Origin: Sinosporangium album
GTDB lineage: Bacteria; Actinomycetota; Actinomycetes; Streptosporangiales; Streptosporangiaceae
DNA: 64,000 nt
Reading direction: 5' to 3'
Assembly (NCBI RefSeq): GCF_900100605.1
Contig: NZ_FNCN01000002.1
Span: 12,091 to 76,090, forward strand
In this document: positions 10,804 to 20,722 of the stretch, piece after piece
Layout: each line of letters opens with the position of its first letter
Position numbering within the stretch: position 1 is the first letter of the stretch
Translations under genes and position numbers: made by a program
Notes under the pieces: generated by a model
What the model saw: the letters and a program-made list of their open reading frames with translations, nothing else
What the model was told of the DNA's origin: nothing
Databases searched by the model: none

Positions 10804-11190
10804 GGGAACCGAGTGTGGACTACAACATGTGTTCTTGTGGCTACTTTCGGTAAATCGCTCGGTCCTGGACTGGACATTGTGGGGAATTCATTTCGGTACG
10901 GCATAAGCCGGGCACAAGCCGATTTATCGGCATGTGCGTGAGTGCTGATTCGGTGTTCTCCCGGAAGGTGCGGGCGGATTCGCGTGGGGCGATATTCGGT
11001 GAACTGTCCGGTTGGTCACCACATTGCCAGGCATTTGCAGATCGCTGCAGATCCCCGTGGATCCCCGTGGATCGCGGGGTGACTCCAGGTGAAATGTGGG
11101 TTGATTCATGGGAGTTCTATGGGGTTTGAGGGCACCCGAGGGGTACAGCGAGGGGGTAGGGGCGGGCAGAATAAGGGAGTGAAGTCAGAC
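10804..11190. other. Intergenic region upstream of dxr
   Basis: No convincing gene in 387 bp. The 10804-10930 part is AT-rich and probably carries the protease promoter. A short direct repeat of GATCCCCGTG occurs at 11049-11072. AAGGGAG at 11173-11179 precedes the dxr ATG. Small open frames here lack ribosome sites. Confidence 0.5.
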
Positions 11191-12360
11191 ATGAGCCGTT
11201 CGGTGATCCTGCTCGGGTCCACCGGGTCCATCGGCACGCAGGCGCTTGACGTGATCGCGAGAAACCCCGGCCGGTTCACCGTCGCGGGACTCGCCGCGGG
11301 CGGATCGCGTGTCGAACCGCTGGCCCGGCAGGCGGCCGAGTTCGGTGCGGGTGCGGTCGCCGTGGCCGACGAGGGGGCCGTGCCCGCTCTCAGGGAGGCG
11401 TTGGCCGCCCACGGCTCGCGCGCGGAGGTGCTCGCGGGGCCGGAAGGGGTCGCCGAGCTGGCCGGCCGACCCTGCGAGGTGGTCCTCAACGGTGTGACGG
11501 GCGCCCTCGGACTGACCTCGACGCTGGCCGCGCTGGAGGCCGGACGGACGCTCGCCCTGGCGAACAAGGAGTCCCTCATCATCGGGGGGCCGCTGGTCAA
11601 GCGCCTGGTCCGGCCCGGCCGGCTGTTGCCGGTCGACTCCGAGCACTCGGCGCTGGCCCAGTGCCTGTGGGCGGGCGGGCCGGACGGCGAGCGGGCTCAT
11701 GCCGTACGCCGCCTCGTGGTCACCGCGAGCGGTGGGCCCTTCCGGGGGAAGCGGCGGGAGGAGCTGTCGGCGGTGACGCCGCAGATGGCGCTCGCCCACC
11801 CGACGTGGTCGATGGGGCCGGTGGTCACCGTCAACTCCGCGACCCTCGTCAACAAGGGCCTGGAGATTATCGAGGCGCATCTCCTCTTCGACATCGGCTT
11901 CGACCGCATCGAGGTCATGGTGCACCCGCAGTCGGTGGTCCACTCGATGGTCGAGTTCGTGGACGGCTCCGTGATCGCCCAGGCGAGCCCGCCGAACATG
12001 TGCCTTCCGATCGCTCTCGCCCTGGGGTGGCCGGACCGGGTACCCGACGCGGCGCCCTCCATCGACTGGACCCGCTCTCACACGTGGACCTTCGAGCCGG
12101 TGGACGGCGAGGCGTTCCCCTCGATCGCGCTGGCCCGCCACGTCGGTTCGGAGGGGGGTACGGCTCCTGCCGTCTTCAACGCGGCCAACGAGGTGTGCGT
12201 GGACGCCTTCCTTCAGGGGCGGCTGCCGTTCCTCGGCATTGTGGACACCGTGGCCAAGGTGGTGGAGGAGCACGAGGTCTCTCCGGTGGGCTCGGTGGAC
12301 GAAGTGCTCGCGGCCGACCAATGGGCACGTGCGAGGGCTCAGGAGATCACTGCAGGATAA
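11191..12360 (+). CDS. dxr: 1-deoxy-D-xylulose 5-phosphate reductoisomerase
   Basis: Second enzyme of the MEP isoprenoid pathway, converting DXP to MEP with NADPH. The 389-aa protein begins with the NADPH site [16 protein letters not shown] and contains the family motifs [28 protein letters not shown] and [13 protein letters not shown]. The ATG at 11191 is used; an in-frame GTG at 11179 overlaps the ribosome site. ispG follows 154 bp later. In many actinobacteria a site-2 (RseP-type) metalloprotease gene sits between the two; none is present here. Confidence 0.95.
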
Positions 12361-12514
12361 ACGTGATGTATGTGTGCGTTATGACTGACATGCCCGAGTT
12401 GGGCCCTGTACTGCCTAGACTTGTGGTGAGCGTTCATCATCCCCCGCTGCCGGACACCTCTGTCCGCGTGGATGTATGACTCTCAGTGTCGTCGAACAAT
12501 TCTGAGGCTGAAAT

Positions 12515-13687
12515 ATGACACCTGTTGCGCTGGGCATCCCTTCCGTTCGGACCAAGCCGATCGCCGACCGCCGGGTTTCCCGGCAGATCATGGTGGGTTC
12601 GGTTCCGGTCGGCGGTGACGCACCGGTCTCCGTGCAGTCGATGACCACGACCGTTACCGCGGACATCAACTCCACCCTCCAGCAGATCGCCGAGCTGACC
12701 GCGGCCGGATGCCAGATCGTGCGCGTGGCCGTGCCCTCGCAGGACGACGCGGAGGCGCTTCCGGTCATCGCCAAGAAGTCTCAGATCCCCGTCATCGCCG
12801 ACATCCACTTCCAGCCGAAGTACGTGTTCGCCGCCATCGAGGCGGGGTGCGCCGCCGTCCGGGTCAACCCCGGCAACATCAAGAAATTCGACGACAAGGT
12901 CGGCGAGATCGCCAAGGCCGCCGCCGCCAACGGCGTGCCCATCCGCATCGGCGTCAACGCCGGATCGCTCGACCCGCGCCTGCTCGCGAAGTACGGCAAG
13001 GCCACGCCGGAGGCGCTCGTCGAGTCGGCGCTGTGGGAGTGCTCGCTGTTCGAGGAGCACGGCTTCAGGGACATCAAGATCTCGGTCAAGCACAACGACC
13101 CGGTGGTGATGGTGCAGGCATACCGCCTGCTCGCGGCCCAGTGCGACTACCCCCTGCACCTCGGTGTGACCGAGGCCGGGCCCGCGTTCCAGGGCACCAT
13201 CAAGTCCGCGGTCGCCTTCGGGGCGCTTCTGTCCGAAGGCATCGGCGACACGATCAGGGTGTCCCTCTCCGCCCCGCCGGTCGAGGAGATCAAGGTCGGC
13301 ATCGGCATCCTCGAGTCGTTCAACCTGCGCGAGCGCGGTCTGGAGATCGTCTCCTGTCCGTCGTGCGGCCGGGCCCAGGTCGACGTCTACACGCTGGCCG
13401 AGCAGGTGCAGGCCGGTCTCACCGGGCTCAAGATCCCGCTCCGGGTCGCGGTCATGGGCTGTGTCGTCAACGGCCCCGGCGAGGCGCGCGAGGCCGACCT
13501 CGGCGTGGCCTCGGGCAACGGGAAGGGCCAGATCTTCGTCAAGGGCGAGGTCATCAAGACGGTGCCCGAGTCCCAGATCGTCGAGACCCTCATCGAGGAG
13601 GCGCTGCGTCTCGCGGAGGCCATGGGCGTCGAGATCGACCTCGACGACCTCGACGAGAGCCCGGGTCCCGAGGTCACCGTCCACTAA
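12515..13687 (+). CDS. ispG: 4-hydroxy-3-methylbut-2-enyl diphosphate synthase
   Basis: Penultimate MEP-pathway enzyme, a 4Fe-4S protein converting methylerythritol cyclodiphosphate to HMBPP. The 390-aa bacterial form has an N-terminal TIM barrel ([37 protein letters not shown]) and a C-terminal cluster domain with Cys281 and Cys284 (CPSC), Cys316 ([11 protein letters not shown]) and a nearby Glu as the fourth ligand. The ATG at 12515 has GAGG about 8 bases upstream. It follows dxr on the same strand. Confidence 0.95.
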
Positions 13688-13926
13688 GTCCACCACTGAC
13701 GGGATTCCCGGGATAAAACACTGATCAGGTAGCTATACGGCACTCGTACGGCTCCGCCCGCGAGGTCGACTTGTGGGACTCTCAGGACGAGCACAGAACG
13801 AGCACTGTGATTACAATGCGCTATCAACCCATTACATGGTGACAGCTAAACTTGCATACTCCGCGTAGTCGATCGATCGCCTGAGGGAACATCGCCTCTG
13901 TCGTCTGAGCAGAGGAGAGTTCGCCG

Positions 13927-15603
13927 GTGAAACGGGTATTCGGACTGGTCACGGGTGCGGCGGTGCTGACCGTGGGCGTGGGGGTGAGCGGCGCTCCGGC
14001 CCGGGCCGGAGCGCTCTTCGAAGGACGGGTCGGCAGCGCCACGCCGGCCGACCGGTCCGCCGGCCTTTCATGGGGACCGTGCGCCGCCGAGCCCGGAGCC
14101 GCCTCGGCTCCCGCCGGCGGCGTCGAATGCGCCACCCTGCCGGTCCCGCTCGATCACCGCAACCCCGACGGCAGACGCATCTCCCTCGCCCTCACCCGCG
14201 TCAAGAGCGCCACTCCGGCCGTCTCCACCTCGGGCCGGGCACGGCCGCGCGGCGGCCACCTCGGCGTCCTGCTCGTCAACCCCGGCGGCCCCGGCGCGTC
14301 CGGGCGCGATCTCGCCCGCTTCGTCGCCACCGCGCTCCCCGAGGACCTCGCCGCCCGCTACGACGTGATCGGGTTCGACCCGCGCGGGGTGGGCAAGAGC
14401 GAACCCGCCTTGAGCTGCGCCGACGCCGATCGCCACTACACGCCTCCCGCTCTCGACAACGTGCCTCAAAGCCCCGCCGAGGAGGCGGTGCTGGTCGAGC
14501 GGGCCAAGAGCTACGCCCGCGGGTGCGCGTCCCGCTTCTCCTGGATGCTGCCCCACATGACCACCGAGAACGTCGCTCGCGACCTCGACCTCATGCGCCG
14601 GGCGCTGGGCAAGCAGCAGATCAGCTACCTGGGCTACTCCTACGGCTCCTACCTCGGGGCGGTCTACGCGACCCTCTACCCCGGGAGCGTCAAACGGCTC
14701 GTCCTCGACAGCATCGTCGACCCCCACCGGGTGTGGTACGCGGCCAACCTCGCGCAGAACCACGCCTTCGAACGCCGCCACCGCGACTTCCTCGCCTGGG
14801 TGGCGAGCCACGACGGCGTGTACGGCCTGGGCCGTACCGAGCAGGTCGTCCGCGCCGCCTGGTACTCCATGCGCGACCGGCTCCGCGTCGCGCCCGTCGA
14901 CGGGGTCGTCGGCCCAAGCGAACTCGACGACATCTTCACCGTGGCCGGTTACAGCGACACGGTGTGGCCGCACTTCGCCGAGGCGTTCTCCGCCTACATG
15001 CGCAAGGGCGAGGGGCGCCGCCTCCTGCAGATGCACCGGCGCCACGGCAAGAAGGACGCCGCCGACGAGAACGGCTACGCCGTCTACCTCGGGGTGCAGT
15101 GCCGCGACGCCTCCTGGCCGCGCGACTGGGGCACATGGCGGGCGGACATGACCGCCTCCCACCAGGTCTCGCCCTTCCTGACCTGGCCTAACGCCTGGTA
15201 CAACGCGCCGTGCGCCTTCTGGCCCGTGTCCGGCGGCACGCCCGTCACGATCCGCGCCGCAGAGAACCTCCCGCCCATCCTCTTGATCCAGTCCCGGCGC
15301 GACGCCGCCACGCCGTACCCCGGCGCGCTCCGGATGCGCACGCTGTTCCCCACGGCCAGGCTCCTCGCCGTCTCGGGCGGGAGCCACGGAGTGGCCCTCG
15401 CCGGCAACCGCTGCGTCGACCGGCACGTCGCCGACTACCTGCGCGACGGCACCCTGCCGGCGACCACCGCCAAGCGAGGTACGGCGGAGGCCGACGTGGC
15501 CTGCGCCGGGCTCACCCCGCCCCGCCCGGCGGCCCGCATGGCCGGAGGCGGTGACCAGCAGCGGCACCTGGAGTTGATCGACGTTCTCCAGGGCCGCACC
15601 TGA
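13927..15603 (+). CDS. Secreted alpha/beta hydrolase, tripeptidyl aminopeptidase type (S33)
   Basis: A 558-aa exported hydrolase, probably removing short peptides from secreted protein N-termini or digesting peptides. The GTG start follows AGAGGAGAG. A signal peptide ends near residue 27 (APARA). Motifs: the oxyanion region NPGGPGASG, FDPRGVGKS, the nucleophile elbow GYSYGSYLG with Ser238, then the C-terminal TAP-like domain with Asp in QSRRDAATP and His in SGGSHGV. Length and order fit the actinomycete Tap/Slp family. It stands alone between ispG and the acetyltransferase. Confidence 0.88.
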   Translation: MKRVFGLVTGAAVLTVGVGVSGAPARAGALFEGRVGSATPADRSAGLSWGPCAAEPGAASAPAGGVECATLPVPLDHRNPDGRRISLALTRVKSATPAVSTSGRARPRGGHLGVLLVNPGGPGASGRDLARFVATALPEDLAARYDVIGFDPRGVGKSEPALSCADADRHYTPPALDNVPQSPAEEAVLVERAKSYARGCASRFSWMLPHMTTENVARDLDLMRRALGKQQISYLGYSYGSYLGAVYATLYPGSVKRLVLDSIVDPHRVWYAANLAQNHAFERRHRDFLAWVASHDGVYGLGRTEQVVRAAWYSMRDRLRVAPVDGVVGPSELDDIFTVAGYSDTVWPHFAEAFSAYMRKGEGRRLLQMHRRHGKKDAADENGYAVYLGVQCRDASWPRDWGTWRADMTASHQVSPFLTWPNAWYNAPCAFWPVSGGTPVTIRAAENLPPILLIQSRRDAATPYPGALRMRTLFPTARLLAVSGGSHGVALAGNRCVDRHVADYLRDGTLPATTAKRGTAEADVACAGLTPPRPAARMAGGGDQQRHLELIDVLQGRT

Positions 15604-15684
15604 CCACAGCCGGGGCTCATGCCTCGGACATGTGGTGACACTACGGGTTCTACGGTGGTTCCTAGTAAATTCGGAGCCGTGGCG

Positions 15685-15697
15685 TAGGCTGGGCCCG
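15685..15697 (+). promoter_or_regulatory. Leaderless promoter -10 box
   Basis: TAGGCT at 15685-15690 is followed by six bases and the GTG at 15697. No ribosome site is present, which supports a leaderless transcript and a start at 15697 rather than the ATG at 15700. Confidence 0.55.
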
Positions 15698-16542
15698 TGA
15701 TGCTGCGCACATCGGCGTCGCGCGTGCTCGACGACAGCGATCGCGAGGAAGTGTTGGCACTTCTCGACGCTGATCCCGTCGCCAACGTCTTCGTCGCATC
15801 CAGGGTTCGGGCCGTCGGTCTCAACCCCGGACGGCTCGGCGGACAGATGTGGGGCTATGGTCCGCGCGGTGCCCTCACCTCCCTGTGCTACGCGGGTGCC
15901 AACCTGGTCCCGGTCAACGCCGGTCCGGAGGCCGCGACCGCCTTCGCCGACCGCGCCCGACGGCAGGGCCGCCGATGTTCGTCCATCGTCGGCCCCGCCG
16001 ACGCGGTGGAACGCATGTGGGAACGGCTTGAGCCGTACTGGGGGGCCGCCCGCGCGGTCCGCTGGTCGCAACCGGTCATGGCCATCGGCGACAAGCCGCG
16101 CGTCCCCGCCGATCCGCTGGTGCGGCGGGTGAGGCCCGAGGAGTTCTCCACCCTCCTGCCCGCCTGCGTCGCGATGTTCACCGAGGAGGTCGGCATCTCG
16201 CCCGACACCGGCGACGGCGGCGCTCTCTACCGCACCCGCGTCGCCGAGCTCATCCGCATCGGACGCTCCTACGCCCGCATCGAGGACGGCACCGTCGTCT
16301 TCAAGGCCGAGATCGGCGCTGTGACCCCCCAGGCATGCCAGATCCAGGGCGTCTGGGTGAATCCGGAGCTGCGCGGCCAGGGGCACGCCGTGGCCGGCAT
16401 GGCGGCCATTGTCGAACACGCCCTCGCGTGCTTCGCGCCGCTCGTCACGCTGTACGTCAACGACTTCAACGCCGCCGCCCGCGCCGTCTACCGCAAGGTG
16501 GGGTTCACCGAGGTGGACACGTTCATGTCTGTGCTGTTCTGA
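15697..16542 (+). CDS. DUF4081 / GNAT acetyltransferase
   Basis: A 281-aa protein with the actinobacterial DUF4081 N-terminal half (LDADPVANVFVASRV, GGQMWGYG) and a C-terminal GNAT fold containing the acetyl-CoA motif VNPELRGQGHAVAGMAAIVEHAL and the terminal LYVNDFNAAARAVYRKVGF. The substrate is unknown. In other actinobacteria such a gene commonly lies between ispG and proS; here proS is about 29 kb further on. Confidence 0.85.
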   Translation: MMLRTSASRVLDDSDREEVLALLDADPVANVFVASRVRAVGLNPGRLGGQMWGYGPRGALTSLCYAGANLVPVNAGPEAATAFADRARRQGRRCSSIVGPADAVERMWERLEPYWGAARAVRWSQPVMAIGDKPRVPADPLVRRVRPEEFSTLLPACVAMFTEEVGISPDTGDGGALYRTRVAELIRIGRSYARIEDGTVVFKAEIGAVTPQACQIQGVWVNPELRGQGHAVAGMAAIVEHALACFAPLVTLYVNDFNAAARAVYRKVGFTEVDTFMSVLF

Positions 16543-16544
16543 CG

Positions 16545-16925
16545 TCAGACGGGACTGACCAGGACCGAGAACAGGCGTTTGAGCTCGGCGGCGGGGTCGG
16601 TGGTGAGCCCCGCATGGACGGGACCGGTCTGGACGATGGTGCTGCGCGGGGCGGTGAGCCAGCGGAAGCGGCTGCCCGGCGACTGGCCGGCGACGGCTCC
16701 GTCCCGGCCGGCGCAGGCGAGCTCGTAGGCGGTGAGCGCGTGCCGCACCGCGGTCAGGTCGGCGTGGGGGTCGAGGGCGTGGAGCCGGACGCCGTCGAGC
16801 TCGACCTTGGCGCACAGGTAGTCGCGCGGCTGGCAGTAGACGATCACGCCGGCGTTGATCAGCTCGCCGCGTTCGACCCGGGGGACGACGCGGATCACGG
16901 CGTATTCGTAGACGACTCGGGTCAA
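16545..16925 (-). CDS. DUF3037 protein, partner of HipA-like kinase
   Basis: A 126-aa protein beginning RVVYEYAVIRVVPRVERGE, the DUF3037 signature, followed by NAGVIVYC and RFRWLTAPRSTIVQTGPVH. The TTG start at 16925 forms a TTGA overlap with the stop of the upstream HipA-like gene and has AAGGAAGG before it, so translation is coupled. DUF3037 has no established biochemical role that I know. Constant pairing with a HipA-type kinase suggests substrate or modulator, toxin/antitoxin-like or otherwise. It ends 3 bases from the convergent acetyltransferase. Confidence 0.8.
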   Translation of the reverse strand: MTRVVYEYAVIRVVPRVERGELINAGVIVYCQPRDYLCAKVELDGVRLHALDPHADLTAVRHALTAYELACAGRDGAVAGQSPGSRFRWLTAPRSTIVQTGPVHAGLTTDPAAELKRLFSVLVSPV

Positions 16926-17743
16926 CGACCTTCCTTCCAGAACGCGCCGACGGAGCCGATGCCGCCGCCTGCGCCGCCGTCGCTGCTCGACGCACCCGGG
17001 ATGGGGAGCCAGGTGCGCGGTCCGCGCACCCTGGCGAGGAGATGATCGACGTAAGCTTGGCGCAGATCCTCCGGCCCGTCGAATCCGGGGACATCGGTCA
17101 GCCATGCCGACGGCACCCGGGCGACCGCGCTCTCCAGCATGTCACGGGTGATCGCCGCCGACAGCGCGGCGTCGGCCTCGGCGAGGCGCGACGCCCAGGG
17201 GGCGAGCACGTGGTCGCCGCCGCCGCGGAACGGGCGCAGCGGGTCGGCCGTCCGCCAGTTGTAGTGGAACCACAGGGCCGCGCCGTGGTCGATCAGCCAG
17301 GTGTCGCCGTGCCACGTCAGAAGGTTGGGGTTGCGCCAACTGCGGTCGACGTTGTGGATGAGGGCGTCGAACCAGAACACGCGCGAGGCGAAGTCCCGGT
17401 CGGGCCTCCAGGTGGTCGGCTCGAAGCCGAGCGCGCCCGGCAGGAAGTCGACGGCCAGGTTGTCGCCCGAGCTGGCCCGCAGGAGGTCTTGGATCTCCTC
17501 GTCGGGCTCGCGATCGGCGAACTGCGGGTCGACCTCGATGACCTTGAGGTCCGGGGTGCGGAATCCGAGGGCCCGGGCGAGCTCGGCACAGATGATCTCC
17601 GCGACGAGGACGGGGCGGCCCTGCCCGGCGCCCCGAAACTTCACGACATAGGTGCCGAGGTCATCGGCCTCCATCACCCCGGGCAGCGACCCGCCCTCCC
17701 GGAGGGGTGTGACATATCTGGTCGCCGTGATCTGATCCAACAC
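16922..17743 (-). CDS. HipA-like kinase family protein
   Basis: A 273-aa compact HipA-type (HipA_2) kinase without the N-terminal extension of classical HipA. Visible kinase elements: Lys35 in YVVKFRG (ATP site), catalytic NVDRSWRN with Asp133 and Asn138, and metal-binding Asp152 in LIDHGA. GTG start at 17743. There is no HipB-type helix-turn-helix gene beside it; instead DUF3037 follows with a 4-base overlap. Classical HipA phosphorylates glutamyl-tRNA synthetase; whether this family does is unknown. The C-terminal 30 residues are Gly/Ser-rich and probably disordered. Confidence 0.82.
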   Translation of the reverse strand: MLDQITATRYVTPLREGGSLPGVMEADDLGTYVVKFRGAGQGRPVLVAEIICAELARALGFRTPDLKVIEVDPQFADREPDEEIQDLLRASSGDNLAVDFLPGALGFEPTTWRPDRDFASRVFWFDALIHNVDRSWRNPNLLTWHGDTWLIDHGAALWFHYNWRTADPLRPFRGGGDHVLAPWASRLAEADAALSAAITRDMLESAVARVPSAWLTDVPGFDGPEDLRQAYVDHLLARVRGPRTWLPIPGASSSDGGAGGGIGSVGAFWKEGR

Positions 17744-17786: not shown

Positions 17787-20033
17787 TCACGTACGGCCGA
17801 CCGCCTCCGGCTTCGCGCCGACCTCGGGCACCTCCGGCACGTCGTCGTCGTGCTCGGCGATGGACATCGGCGGCAGCAACCGGTCCAACCACTTCGGGCA
17901 CCACCAGTTCCAGCGCCCGAGCAGCACCATCGTGGCCGGCACCAGGAAGCCCCGGATGATCGTGGCGTCCACTGCGATGGCCACCGCGAGGCCCACGCCG
18001 AACACCTTCACCAGCGGATCCGGATAGGCGATGAACGCGACGAACACCGCGACCATAATGAGCGCCGCCGAGGTGATGACGCGCCCGGTCGAGCCGAGGC
18101 CCTCGGCGACGGCCTGACGGTTGTCACCCGTGCGGAGATACGCCTGCCGTACGGCTGTCAGCAGGAACACCTCGTAGTCCATCGACAGCCCGAACAGCAC
18201 CGCGAACAGCATCAGCGGCACATAGCTATCGATAGGCACCGAGAAGAAGTACATATTGATGAAGCCCGTGCTGGCGTCGGCCGGCGCGTCCATGCCGACC
18301 AGGCCGCTGCCCAGGCCGAAGGAGAACACCATGGCCAGGGCCCCGAACGCGGCGCCCAGGGAGACGAGGTTCATCAGCGCCGCCTTGATGGCGACGAGCG
18401 GCGCTCGGAAGGCCAGCAGCAGGAGCATCGCACTGAGCATCACCACGACCGCGATCACCAGCGGGGTGCGTTCCGAGATCCGCTGCGTGGCGTCCGCCAT
18501 ACCCGCGACCTCACCGCCCACGTGCACGCTCGCCCCCGGCACGTCGATGGCGCGTACGGCGCGCACGACGTCCAGCGCCTTCGGATCGCTCGGCGCGTAG
18601 TCCGTCACGGCCTGAATCATCACCGATCGGCCGTTCTCGTTGAGCAGGGGCTCGGCCACGTGGGCGACGCCCTCGGTGTGCTCGACCCGCTGGGCCAGCA
18701 CCTGCACGATCGGGGCGGCGGGGTCGGTGTTCTCCACCTTCTGGTTCAGTTCGGCCACCACGACCAGCGGGCCGTTGATCCCGGGCCCGAAACCCACCTC
18801 AAGCAGCTCGTAAGAGCGCCGCGCGGGCGAGTCGCGATCGCCGTACCCGTCGTCGAGAGCCCCGAGCTTCAGTCCGAGCGCCGGCGCGGACAGAGCGGCC
18901 AGCACCGCCACGCTGCCCGCGAGCACGGCCCACGGCCGCTTCGTGACCCACAGCCCGAGCGCCGCCCAGCCCGAGGCCGGGCCGTGGGCGGGGCGCGCGC
19001 GGCGGCCGATGAACGGCAGGCGCAGCGCGTTGACCCGGTGCCCCAGCAGGCCGAGCAGGGCGGGAACCAGGGTGATCGACGTCAGCACCGCGCACACGAC
19101 CGAGATGCCGGTGATCCAGCCGAGTGTGCGCATCAGCGGGAACCCGGCGAGGAGCAGCGCACTCAGCGCGATGATGACCGTGCCGCCGGCGAACACCACC
19201 GCACCACCCGACCCCGCCACCGTCGTGCGCACCGCCTGGTCCACCGGCACGCCGGCGGCGAGCAGGCGCCGGTGGCGCGACAGCAGGAACAGCGCGTAGT
19301 CGATCCCCACGCCCAGGCCGATCATCGTGGCCATGATCGGCGCCTGCTTCGGCACGTCGAGCGCGTGGCCCAGCAGACCGATCACGCCGAGGCCCACACC
19401 GATGCTGATCAGCGCGGCGAAGATGGGGATGAGCGCCGCCACGAGTGTGCCGAACGCCAGCAGCAGCACCAGCAGCGCGCAGATCACGCCGATGATCTCG
19501 CTGGGGCCGGTTTTGATCTCCTTGTCGGCGGGTGTCGAGGCGTCGGCGGGCACGACCTCGATGCCCACCGCGCGGGCGGCCTCGGCCGCGTCCGACAGCT
19601 TCTTGGTGTTGTCGACAAGCTTGGAGGGGTCGTGCCCCTCCATCCGGACCATGATCACCCCGATCCGGAGGTTCGCCGCGATGCCCCCCATCCGGAACGG
19701 GGTCTGTGCCTCCACCACGTGCGGTACGGCGCGGAGCGCGGTCAGCGTCCTCTCGATGGCCGCCTTGTCGGGCTCGTCGGTCAGCGGGCCGTCCTTGTCG
19801 TACAGCACGAGCTGCACGGTGCCGCCGGGGTCGAAGCCCGGGCCGAACCCGTCGCGCATCAGCTCGTGGGCCCGCTGCGCGTCGGTGCCCGGGATGCTCA
19901 CATCGTTGCTCGTCGGGCGGCCGAAGACCACGGTGCCGGCCGTCAGCGCGACGGCGGCTACGATCCACAGCGCCAGCACGATGAGGCCGTGCCTCGCGCA
20001 CCATCCGCCCAGCCTGCCGAGCAAGGAAGCCAT
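17787..20033 (-). CDS. MMPL-family (RND-type) transporter
   Basis: A 748-aa inner-membrane exporter. The ATG at 20033 is followed by a first membrane helix (LIVLALWIVAAVALTAGTVVFG). Two repeats of an extracytoplasmic domain plus a helix bundle are visible; GVGIDYALFLLSRHRR and GLSMDYEVFLLTAVR are the duplicated MMPL motif-D-like segments with the proton-relay Asp. The hydrophilic C-terminus holds an EHDDDVPEVPEVG tail. The divergent TetR gene and the 24-bp palindrome between them indicate drug- or lipid-responsive repression. The cargo is not predictable. Confidence 0.9.
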   Translation of the reverse strand: MASLLGRLGGWCARHGLIVLALWIVAAVALTAGTVVFGRPTSNDVSIPGTDAQRAHELMRDGFGPGFDPGGTVQLVLYDKDGPLTDEPDKAAIERTLTALRAVPHVVEAQTPFRMGGIAANLRIGVIMVRMEGHDPSKLVDNTKKLSDAAEAARAVGIEVVPADASTPADKEIKTGPSEIIGVICALLVLLLAFGTLVAALIPIFAALISIGVGLGVIGLLGHALDVPKQAPIMATMIGLGVGIDYALFLLSRHRRLLAAGVPVDQAVRTTVAGSGGAVVFAGGTVIIALSALLLAGFPLMRTLGWITGISVVCAVLTSITLVPALLGLLGHRVNALRLPFIGRRARPAHGPASGWAALGLWVTKRPWAVLAGSVAVLAALSAPALGLKLGALDDGYGDRDSPARRSYELLEVGFGPGINGPLVVVAELNQKVENTDPAAPIVQVLAQRVEHTEGVAHVAEPLLNENGRSVMIQAVTDYAPSDPKALDVVRAVRAIDVPGASVHVGGEVAGMADATQRISERTPLVIAVVVMLSAMLLLLAFRAPLVAIKAALMNLVSLGAAFGALAMVFSFGLGSGLVGMDAPADASTGFINMYFFSVPIDSYVPLMLFAVLFGLSMDYEVFLLTAVRQAYLRTGDNRQAVAEGLGSTGRVITSAALIMVAVFVAFIAYPDPLVKVFGVGLAVAIAVDATIIRGFLVPATMVLLGRWNWWCPKWLDRLLPPMSIAEHDDDVPEVPEVGAKPEAVGRT

Positions 20034-20064
20034 GCTGTGACCCCACAGTCGAGATGAGAACGCC

Positions 20065-20088
20065 CGTTCTGTACGGCCGTACAGAACG
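20065..20088. promoter_or_regulatory. Perfect 24-bp palindrome, probable TetR operator
   Basis: All 24 bases from 20065 to 20088 form a perfect inverted repeat with half-site CGTTCTGTACGG. It lies 31 bp before the MMPL start and 55 bp before the TetR start, overlapping where both promoters must be. This strongly suggests a TetR dimer-of-dimers or dimer site controlling both genes. Confidence 0.8.
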
Positions 20089-20143
20089 AGGATCGCAGAA
20101 TAGGCGCGATGAATCAGGAAATCTCCCCCATATCTGGAATGAG

Positions 20144-20722
20144 ATGATGGCCACACTTGACCAGGGCAACGACACCCGCAGCCGGATCCTCGCCGCGGCG
20201 CGGGCCCTTTTCGCCGAGCGGGGCTACGCGGGCACGTCGCTGGCCGACATCGGTGCCGCCGTCGGCCTCACCAAGACCGCGGTCGCCTACCACTTCCACC
20301 CCAAGGACCGCCTCGCCGCCGAGATCATCGCCCCGGCGGCTGAGGACATGCTCGTCCTCCTCGGCACCGACTTCGCCGGTGACCGCGCGGCCTATCTCGA
20401 CGCGTTCATCACCTTCGTCGTACGGCACCGCGCCGTCATACGCCTGATCATCGACGACCTCGTCGACGACCTCCTCGGTGACCTCGGTGGCGCCGACGAG
20501 GTCCTCCCCGGCACCCTCGGCGAGGCCATCCGCACCTTCCGCGATGAGATCTTCAACCGGCTCCTGGGCCCCGACCCGACCCCCGCCGACCGCGCGTTGG
20601 CCTGGACCGTCCTCGGCGGTGTGCAGACGGCCATCGTCAAGACCATGGACATGCCCGAGGAAGAGGTGCGCGACATCCTGCGCGTGGCCGCGGCGGCCGT
20701 GATGGAGAGCCGGCCGCGCTGA
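20144..20722 (+). CDS. TetR/AcrR-family repressor of the MMPL exporter
   Basis: A 192-aa regulator. The helix-turn-helix is TSLADIGAAVGLTKTAVAYHFHPKDRL at about residues 30-56, preceded by ILAAARALFAERGYAG. Tandem ATGs at 20144 and 20147 both fit. The C-terminal ligand domain is unassigned. Divergent placement from the MMPL gene across a perfect palindrome makes autoregulation and exporter control very likely. Confidence 0.88.
   Translation: MMATLDQGNDTRSRILAAARALFAERGYAGTSLADIGAAVGLTKTAVAYHFHPKDRLAAEIIAPAAEDMLVLLGTDFAGDRAAYLDAFITFVVRHRAVIRLIIDDLVDDLLGDLGGADEVLPGTLGEAIRTFRDEIFNRLLGPDPTPADRALAWTVLGGVQTAIVKTMDMPEEEVRDILRVAAAAVMESRPR

What the first reader, a model, noticed from the sequence alone, without database searches (positions are those of the whole stretch)
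16545..17743. HipA-like kinase translationally coupled to DUF3037, no HipB
Seen: a compact HipA-type kinase with Lys35, Asp133, Asn138 and Asp152 intact, overlapping by TTGA with a DUF3037 gene. Known: HipA toxins normally pair with HipB DNA-binding antitoxins. Inference: DUF3037 replaces HipB as partner, either as antitoxin, substrate or scaffold. The biochemical role of this pair is, to my knowledge, undescribed.
Basis: partly seen in the sequence, partly recalled or inferred. Interest (0 to 1): 0.68.

Follow-up and report, generated by a model that had tools for sequence, protein, structure and literature searches.

The report
Compact HipA kinase with DUF3037 partner
Two overlapping genes encode a small protein kinase and a partner that probably keeps it switched off; distant cousins are proven anti-phage toxin-antitoxin pairs, but this short version looks like a stable, nearly universal chromosomal gene pair in Streptomyces and many relatives.

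Summary
A 273-aa HipA_2 kinase (PF20613; Lys35, Asp133, Asn138, Asp152 intact) overlaps by TTGA a 126-aa DUF3037 gene (PF11236), with no HipB. The claim that the pair is undescribed is out of date: long relatives (PDC-M66, DS-6/HipAD, the Retron-Sda1 operon) are published anti-phage modules in which the kinase is needed for defence and, in Sda1, losing DUF3037 is toxic. 'DUF3037 as antitoxin' is therefore supported by homology, not shown for this pair. What is new is the class. The window's DUF3037 is only the N-terminal half of the published partner. The compact pair is tightly linked (107/107 and 57/58 places; the exception is cut by a contig end), mostly with a 4-nt overlap. DUF3037 is near-core and single-copy in Streptomyces (145/150 genomes), common in the window's family (106/151), absent from viral contigs, and found in Bacteroides and Cyanobacteria. 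Orphan Streptomyces kinases (8/8 examined) lack the metal-binding Asn, and three broken kinases keep an intact DUF3037, as expected of toxin and antitoxin. A fused-chain AlphaFold2 model places DUF3037 on the kinase (pTM 0.80). Verdict: new variant of a known kind.

The parts
16922..17743 (-). HipA_2 (PF20613) kinase, 273 aa, kinase core only
   Evidence: ORF; Pfam E 3e-19; PADLOC PDC-M66A 73 bits; kinase part of the model of a Streptomyces relative matches atypical kinases Fam20/PI4KII/CtkA
16545..16925 (-). DUF3037 (PF11236) protein, 126 aa, TTG start, proposed antitoxin/inhibitor
   Evidence: Pfam E 5.4e-42; AlphaFold2 pLDDT 95.4; no relative in PDB by fold (best E 1.1)
16922..16925 (-). 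TTGA stop/start overlap
   Evidence: read directly; same 4-nt overlap in 71 of 83 further loci
16929..16938 (-). GGAAGGAAGG, Shine-Dalgarno-like purine run for the DUF3037 start
   Evidence: read directly; role inferred
17687..17689 (-). Ser19 in the REGGSLPxxxE loop, at the place of the HipA autophosphorylation-loop Ser
   Evidence: invariant in 74/74; equivalence to HipA Ser150 inferred by motif
17639..17641 (-). Lys35 (ATP-binding Lys)
   Evidence: invariant 74/74
17345..17347 (-). Asp133 (catalytic Asp, NVDRxxRNPN)
   Evidence: invariant 74/74
17330..17332 (-). Asn138 (metal-binding Asn); Ser in orphan Streptomyces paralogues
   Evidence: invariant 74/74; Ser in 8/8 orphans
17288..17290 (-). 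Asp152 (metal-binding Asp, DHGA)
   Evidence: invariant 74/74
11089..16542 (+). conserved neighbourhood dxr - ispG - alpha/beta hydrolase - GNAT next to the pair in many genomes of the family (not part of the module)
   Evidence: tblastn synteny in L051-L054, L058, L061, L065, L067, L068, L070, L107

Best explanation
A two-gene, toxin-antitoxin-like kinase and inhibitor module. The HipA_2 protein is an active Ser/Thr-type kinase core that would slow growth if free. DUF3037 is made from the same mRNA by translational coupling, binds the kinase directly and holds it inactive. Release of the kinase, by phage infection or another stress, would phosphorylate a target and arrest the cell. Unlike the published long-form pairs, the compact DUF3037 has no DNA-binding half, so it probably does not autoregulate its own promoter. 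In Actinomycetota the pair has become a stable chromosomal gene set rather than a mobile defence gene. Shown here: the pairing, the overlap, the intact active site, the distribution. Supported by prediction only: the complex. Inferred from homologues: toxicity and neutralisation. Unknown: target and trigger.
For: Invariant catalytic residues in 74 of 74 kinases. Near-obligate pairing and overlap. Published long relatives: DUF3037 loss toxic, kinase needed for defence, kinase-DUF3037 complex predicted. Asymmetric decay: in G011 (L237) and G128 (L238) the kinase is frameshifted, and in Leptolyngbya (L234) cut to an 88-aa C-terminal remnant, while DUF3037 is intact; no case of an intact kinase with a broken adjacent DUF3037 was seen among the 91 and 83 pairs examined. 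Orphan Streptomyces kinases without DUF3037 have Asn138 replaced by Ser in 8 of 8, and those eight genomes also carry the pair. Fused-chain AlphaFold2 model: pLDDT 90, pTM 0.80, while a DUF3037 unplaced relative to the kinase could give at most about 0.65.
Against: No toxicity or binding experiment exists for the compact form. Near-core, single-copy presence in Streptomyces (145/150) is unusual for a toxin-antitoxin or defence module. The complex model rests on pTM only: alignment rows were not paired, and PAE and coordinates were not seen. The strongest covariation (kinase 157/159 with DUF3037 37) rests on one or two evolutionary events. The three broken kinases could include sequencing errors.
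Confidence: 0.62

Rival explanations
1. Core regulatory kinase: in Actinomycetota the pair is a housekeeping signalling module, with DUF3037 as activator, scaffold or substrate-specificity subunit, and the kinase is not toxic.
For: 145 of 150 Streptomyces genomes, one copy each; 106 of 151 genomes of the window's family; syntenic with dxr-ispG across many genera; no compact pair in viral contigs.
Against: Long homologues behave as toxin and antitoxin; orphan kinases lack Asn138; only broken-kinase/intact-DUF3037 decay was seen, whereas an activator would be lost as readily.
Confidence: 0.25
2. Active anti-phage defence system that simply spread vertically: a compact PDC-M66.
For: Significant but partial PADLOC PDC-M66A/B matches; HipA_2 and DUF3037 long forms defend E. 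coli.
Against: Near-core presence and stable synteny; no phage-borne compact copies; B profile covered only to position 129 of 281. It is not exclusive of the best explanation.
Confidence: 0.3
3. DUF3037 is the kinase's phosphorylation substrate and effector.
For: Genes are coupled and the proteins are predicted to contact each other.
Against: In Sda1, DUF3037 loss is toxic, so harm does not need DUF3037 as effector. I did not test conserved Ser/Thr positions in DUF3037 as phosphosites.
Confidence: 0.08

Closest known systems
PDC-M66 / HipAD (DS-6), long-form HipA_2 + DUF3037
   Same: HipA_2 kinase followed by a DUF3037 gene (overlapping in L236); intact catalytic motif
   Different: Long-form DUF3037 partners are about 280-300 aa with a C-terminal half (DUF1829 in DS-6B; similarity to a retron DNA-binding protein in Sda1); the window's is 126 aa. 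A true PDC-M66 pair (L236) scores 246 and 284 bits, the window's 73 and 36.
Retron-Sda1 HipA/DUF3037 operon
   Same: Two-gene toxin/antitoxin logic with DUF3037
   Different: Linked to a retron RT and ncRNA there; none was identified next to the compact pairs, though neighbours were not searched for RTs systematically
HipBA
   Same: Kinase superfamily and catalytic residues; Ser in the glycine-rich loop
   Different: No HipB; no HipA N-terminal domain found; HipA_C match below cut-off; partner is not a helix-turn-helix protein
HipBST
   Same: Small kinase core with a separate non-HTH neutralising partner
   Different: Two genes, not three; DUF3037 shows no significant fold match to any PDB entry

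Membership tests
PDC-M66 / HipAD | HipA_2 kinase gene directly upstream of a DUF3037 gene | tested here: met
PDC-M66 / HipAD | long DUF3037 partner with C-terminal DNA-binding or DUF1829 half | tested here: not met
   126 aa; PDC-M66B covered only at 3-129 of 281, against 3-279 for L236
PDC-M66 / HipAD | full-length, high-scoring match to the PADLOC kinase model | tested here: not met
   73 bits over residues 1-162, against 246 bits full length for L236
PDC-M66 / HipAD | kinase toxic without DUF3037 and giving phage defence | not testable with these tools
   published for relatives only
HipBA | adjacent HipB-type HTH antitoxin | tested here: not met
   partner is DUF3037 only
HipBA | HipA_C kinase domain and HipA N-terminal domain | tested here: not met
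   HipA_C 15.8 bits against a 30.5 cut-off; no N-terminal-domain hit
HipBA | intact kinase catalytic residues | tested here: met
HipBST | separate HipS protein resembling the HipA N-terminal domain | tested here: not met
   no significant PDB fold match for DUF3037 (best E 1.1)
HipA_2 / DUF3037 Pfam families | score over the curated cut-off | tested here: met
   69.7 against 27 bits and 143.2 against 22.6 bits

The most novel reading that the evidence does not exclude
The compact HipA_2-DUF3037 pair is a domesticated, near-universal growth-control kinase of Streptomyces and relatives: a toxin-antitoxin module turned into a core regulator (for example of developmental or stress arrest), with an inhibitor whose fold has no solved counterpart.
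Probability: 0.3. Interest if true: 0.7.

Novelty: new variant of a known kind. Interest (0 to 1): 0.47.

Why it matters
A toxin-antitoxin-like kinase pair carried as a single copy by almost every Streptomyces genome sampled would be a rare case of such a module becoming core, and it is directly testable in model strains. The compact DUF3037, 126 residues with a confident predicted fold that has no match in the PDB, is also a minimal inhibitor for structural work on HipA_2 kinases, and it separates neutralisation (N-terminal half) from any DNA binding (C-terminal half) in the published HipAD type.

Tried and rejected
Looking for a compact pair on phages: no tblastn match in INPHARED and no relative in IMG/VR. 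Sequence search of the PDB for the kinase found nothing significant. Fold search of DUF3037 against the PDB found nothing significant; against viral models there were a few weak matches. Direct-coupling analysis of 197 pairs: the top two inter-protein couplings exceed randomly shuffled pairings but rest on one or two events on the tree, so they are not used as evidence of contact. A first fused-chain alignment (A1) placed DUF3037 rows on the kinase and was discarded. The Arabidopsis RST1 paper that names 'DUF3037 (IPR022542)' was set aside; that InterPro number is, from memory, DUF3730. Brenes and Laub 2025 (the HipAD paper) could not be read.

Full report
Observation. The window carries, on the minus strand, a 273-aa HipA_2 kinase (16922-17743) and a 126-aa DUF3037 protein (16545-16925) that share the bases TTGA. 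A purine run GGAAGGAAGG lies just before the TTG start, inside the kinase gene. Each Pfam family has one match in this genome. The closest named relative found is Sinosporangium siamense, 86% identical in the kinase.

What is known. PADLOC lists the pairing as phage-defence candidate PDC-M66. In Retron-Sda1 the HipA-like kinase is needed for defence against Bas51, deleting DUF3037 is toxic, and the retron parts are dispensable (PMC12548924). DS-6, renamed HipAD, needs kinase catalysis for defence, and a kinase-DUF3037 complex is predicted; its partner carries DUF3037 plus DUF1829 (PMC13092281). So the pairing and its toxin-antitoxin logic are already described.

How this one differs. The window's DUF3037 matches only positions 3-129 of the 281-position PDC-M66B profile (36 bits), and its kinase matches PDC-M66A over residues 1-162 (73 bits). 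A true long pair from Pseudorhodobacter (L236: 269 and 284 aa, 4-nt overlap) gives 246 and 284 bits over nearly the whole profiles. Genomes of the same family also hold a third, patchy type with long DUF3037 (about 290-296 aa) and divergent kinases. In the trees the window groups with compact kinases and compact DUF3037s, and both long types sit on very long branches; the exact place of L236 is unsure.

Distribution. In 151 genomes of the window's family, 107 compact DUF3037 places in 106 genomes all have HipA_2 directly upstream. In 396 genomes across the phylum, 57 of 58 do, and the exception is cut by a contig end with kinase sequence still beside it. In Streptomyces, 145 of 150 genomes carry exactly one DUF3037 match, all at compact-class scores; kinase adjacency there was checked only in the phylum sample and the named loci. 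All 83 named genome and plasmid loci have both genes, 71 with the 4-nt overlap. Compact pairs also occur on Bacteroides and Parabacteroides plasmids at 47% kinase identity, and a compact DUF3037 lies beside a kinase remnant on a Leptolyngbya plasmid. None was found in phage records or viral contigs. Beyond the pair, neighbours are conserved only within clades: dxr-ispG-hydrolase-GNAT in the window's part of the family, others elsewhere. This looks like long-term vertical inheritance with occasional transfer or duplication (two copies in G141 and G398).

Active site. Lys35, Asp133, Asn138, Asp152, Ser19 and Glu25 are invariant in 74 distinct compact kinases. Foldseek puts the kinase part of the fused model (from the Streptomyces relative L045, not the window's own protein) among the Fam20, PI4KII and CtkA kinases (E about 1e-4), so 'HipA-type' holds in the broad superfamily sense; canonical HipA was not in the top 50.

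Evidence bearing on toxin and antitoxin. Eight of the Streptomyces genomes in the phylum sample carry a second HipA_2 kinase without DUF3037 beside it; in all eight the metal-binding Asn138 is Ser. In two genomes the kinase of the pair is frameshifted, and in Leptolyngbya it is cut to a C-terminal remnant, with DUF3037 intact each time. No intact kinase with a broken adjacent DUF3037 was seen. These patterns fit a kinase that needs its partner as antidote, but the numbers are small, and the divergent long-type kinases of the family also seem to lack the Asn although they keep a DUF3037.

Complex. In a Streptomyces locus (L045) the two genes lie in one frame separated by a TGA; read through, they form one chain that was folded with unpaired rows. 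The read-through is a device for folding, not a claim about the organism. The model has mean pLDDT 90 and pTM 0.80. The window's DUF3037 alone folds with pLDDT 95.4 into an alpha/beta domain with no PDB match.

Conclusion. The best reading is a compact, chromosomally stable version of the HipA_2-DUF3037 toxin-antitoxin kind. The pairing is known; I found no description of the compact class or its near-core status in Streptomyces in the papers I could search, and subscription journals and preprints were mostly out of reach. Function, target and trigger remain to be tested.

Noticed in passing
L101-L105, L257-L259: Orphan HipA_2 kinase in eight Streptomyces genomes of the phylum sample, about 50% identical to the window's, without DUF3037; Asn138 is Ser in all eight. 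In the five 18-kb loci checked it lies near a conserved gene of about 541 aa that I read, from memory, as malate synthase.
   Followed up: partly
L091-L099: Third type in the window's family: long DUF3037 with divergent HipA_2 kinases whose catalytic loop (GDDAQWL...) appears to lack the metal-binding Asn.
   Followed up: partly
L192:6031-7172 (NZ_CP030864, Streptomyces globosus plasmid): Compact pair inside what looks like a polyketide cluster, near ccrA and the elfamycin efflux gene facT; elfamycins target EF-Tu (from memory).
   Followed up: no
model m3c10770dd081 (window 16545-16925), BFVD hits A0A6G5YJM1, A0A516KTX2, A0A6J5NRF1, G3MB86: A few phage proteins may share the DUF3037 fold (best E 2e-4, TM about 0.55): possible phage-borne decoy antitoxins, or chance.
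   Followed up: no
L234:4739-5411 (Leptolyngbya boryana plasmid p1): Compact DUF3037 intact beside an 88-aa remnant of the kinase; an IS110 transposase lies about 1 kb upstream.
   Followed up: yes
PMC6711988: That paper attributes 'DUF3037 (IPR022542)' to RST1/Focadhesin; from memory IPR022542 is DUF3730, so this looks like transposed digits.
   Followed up: no
window 17787-20156 (-) and 20054-20722 (+): MMPL transporter gene ends 43 bp upstream of the kinase on the same strand, with a divergent TetR gene; the same arrangement is seen in Sinosporangium siamense (L051), not in most other genera examined.
   Followed up: partly
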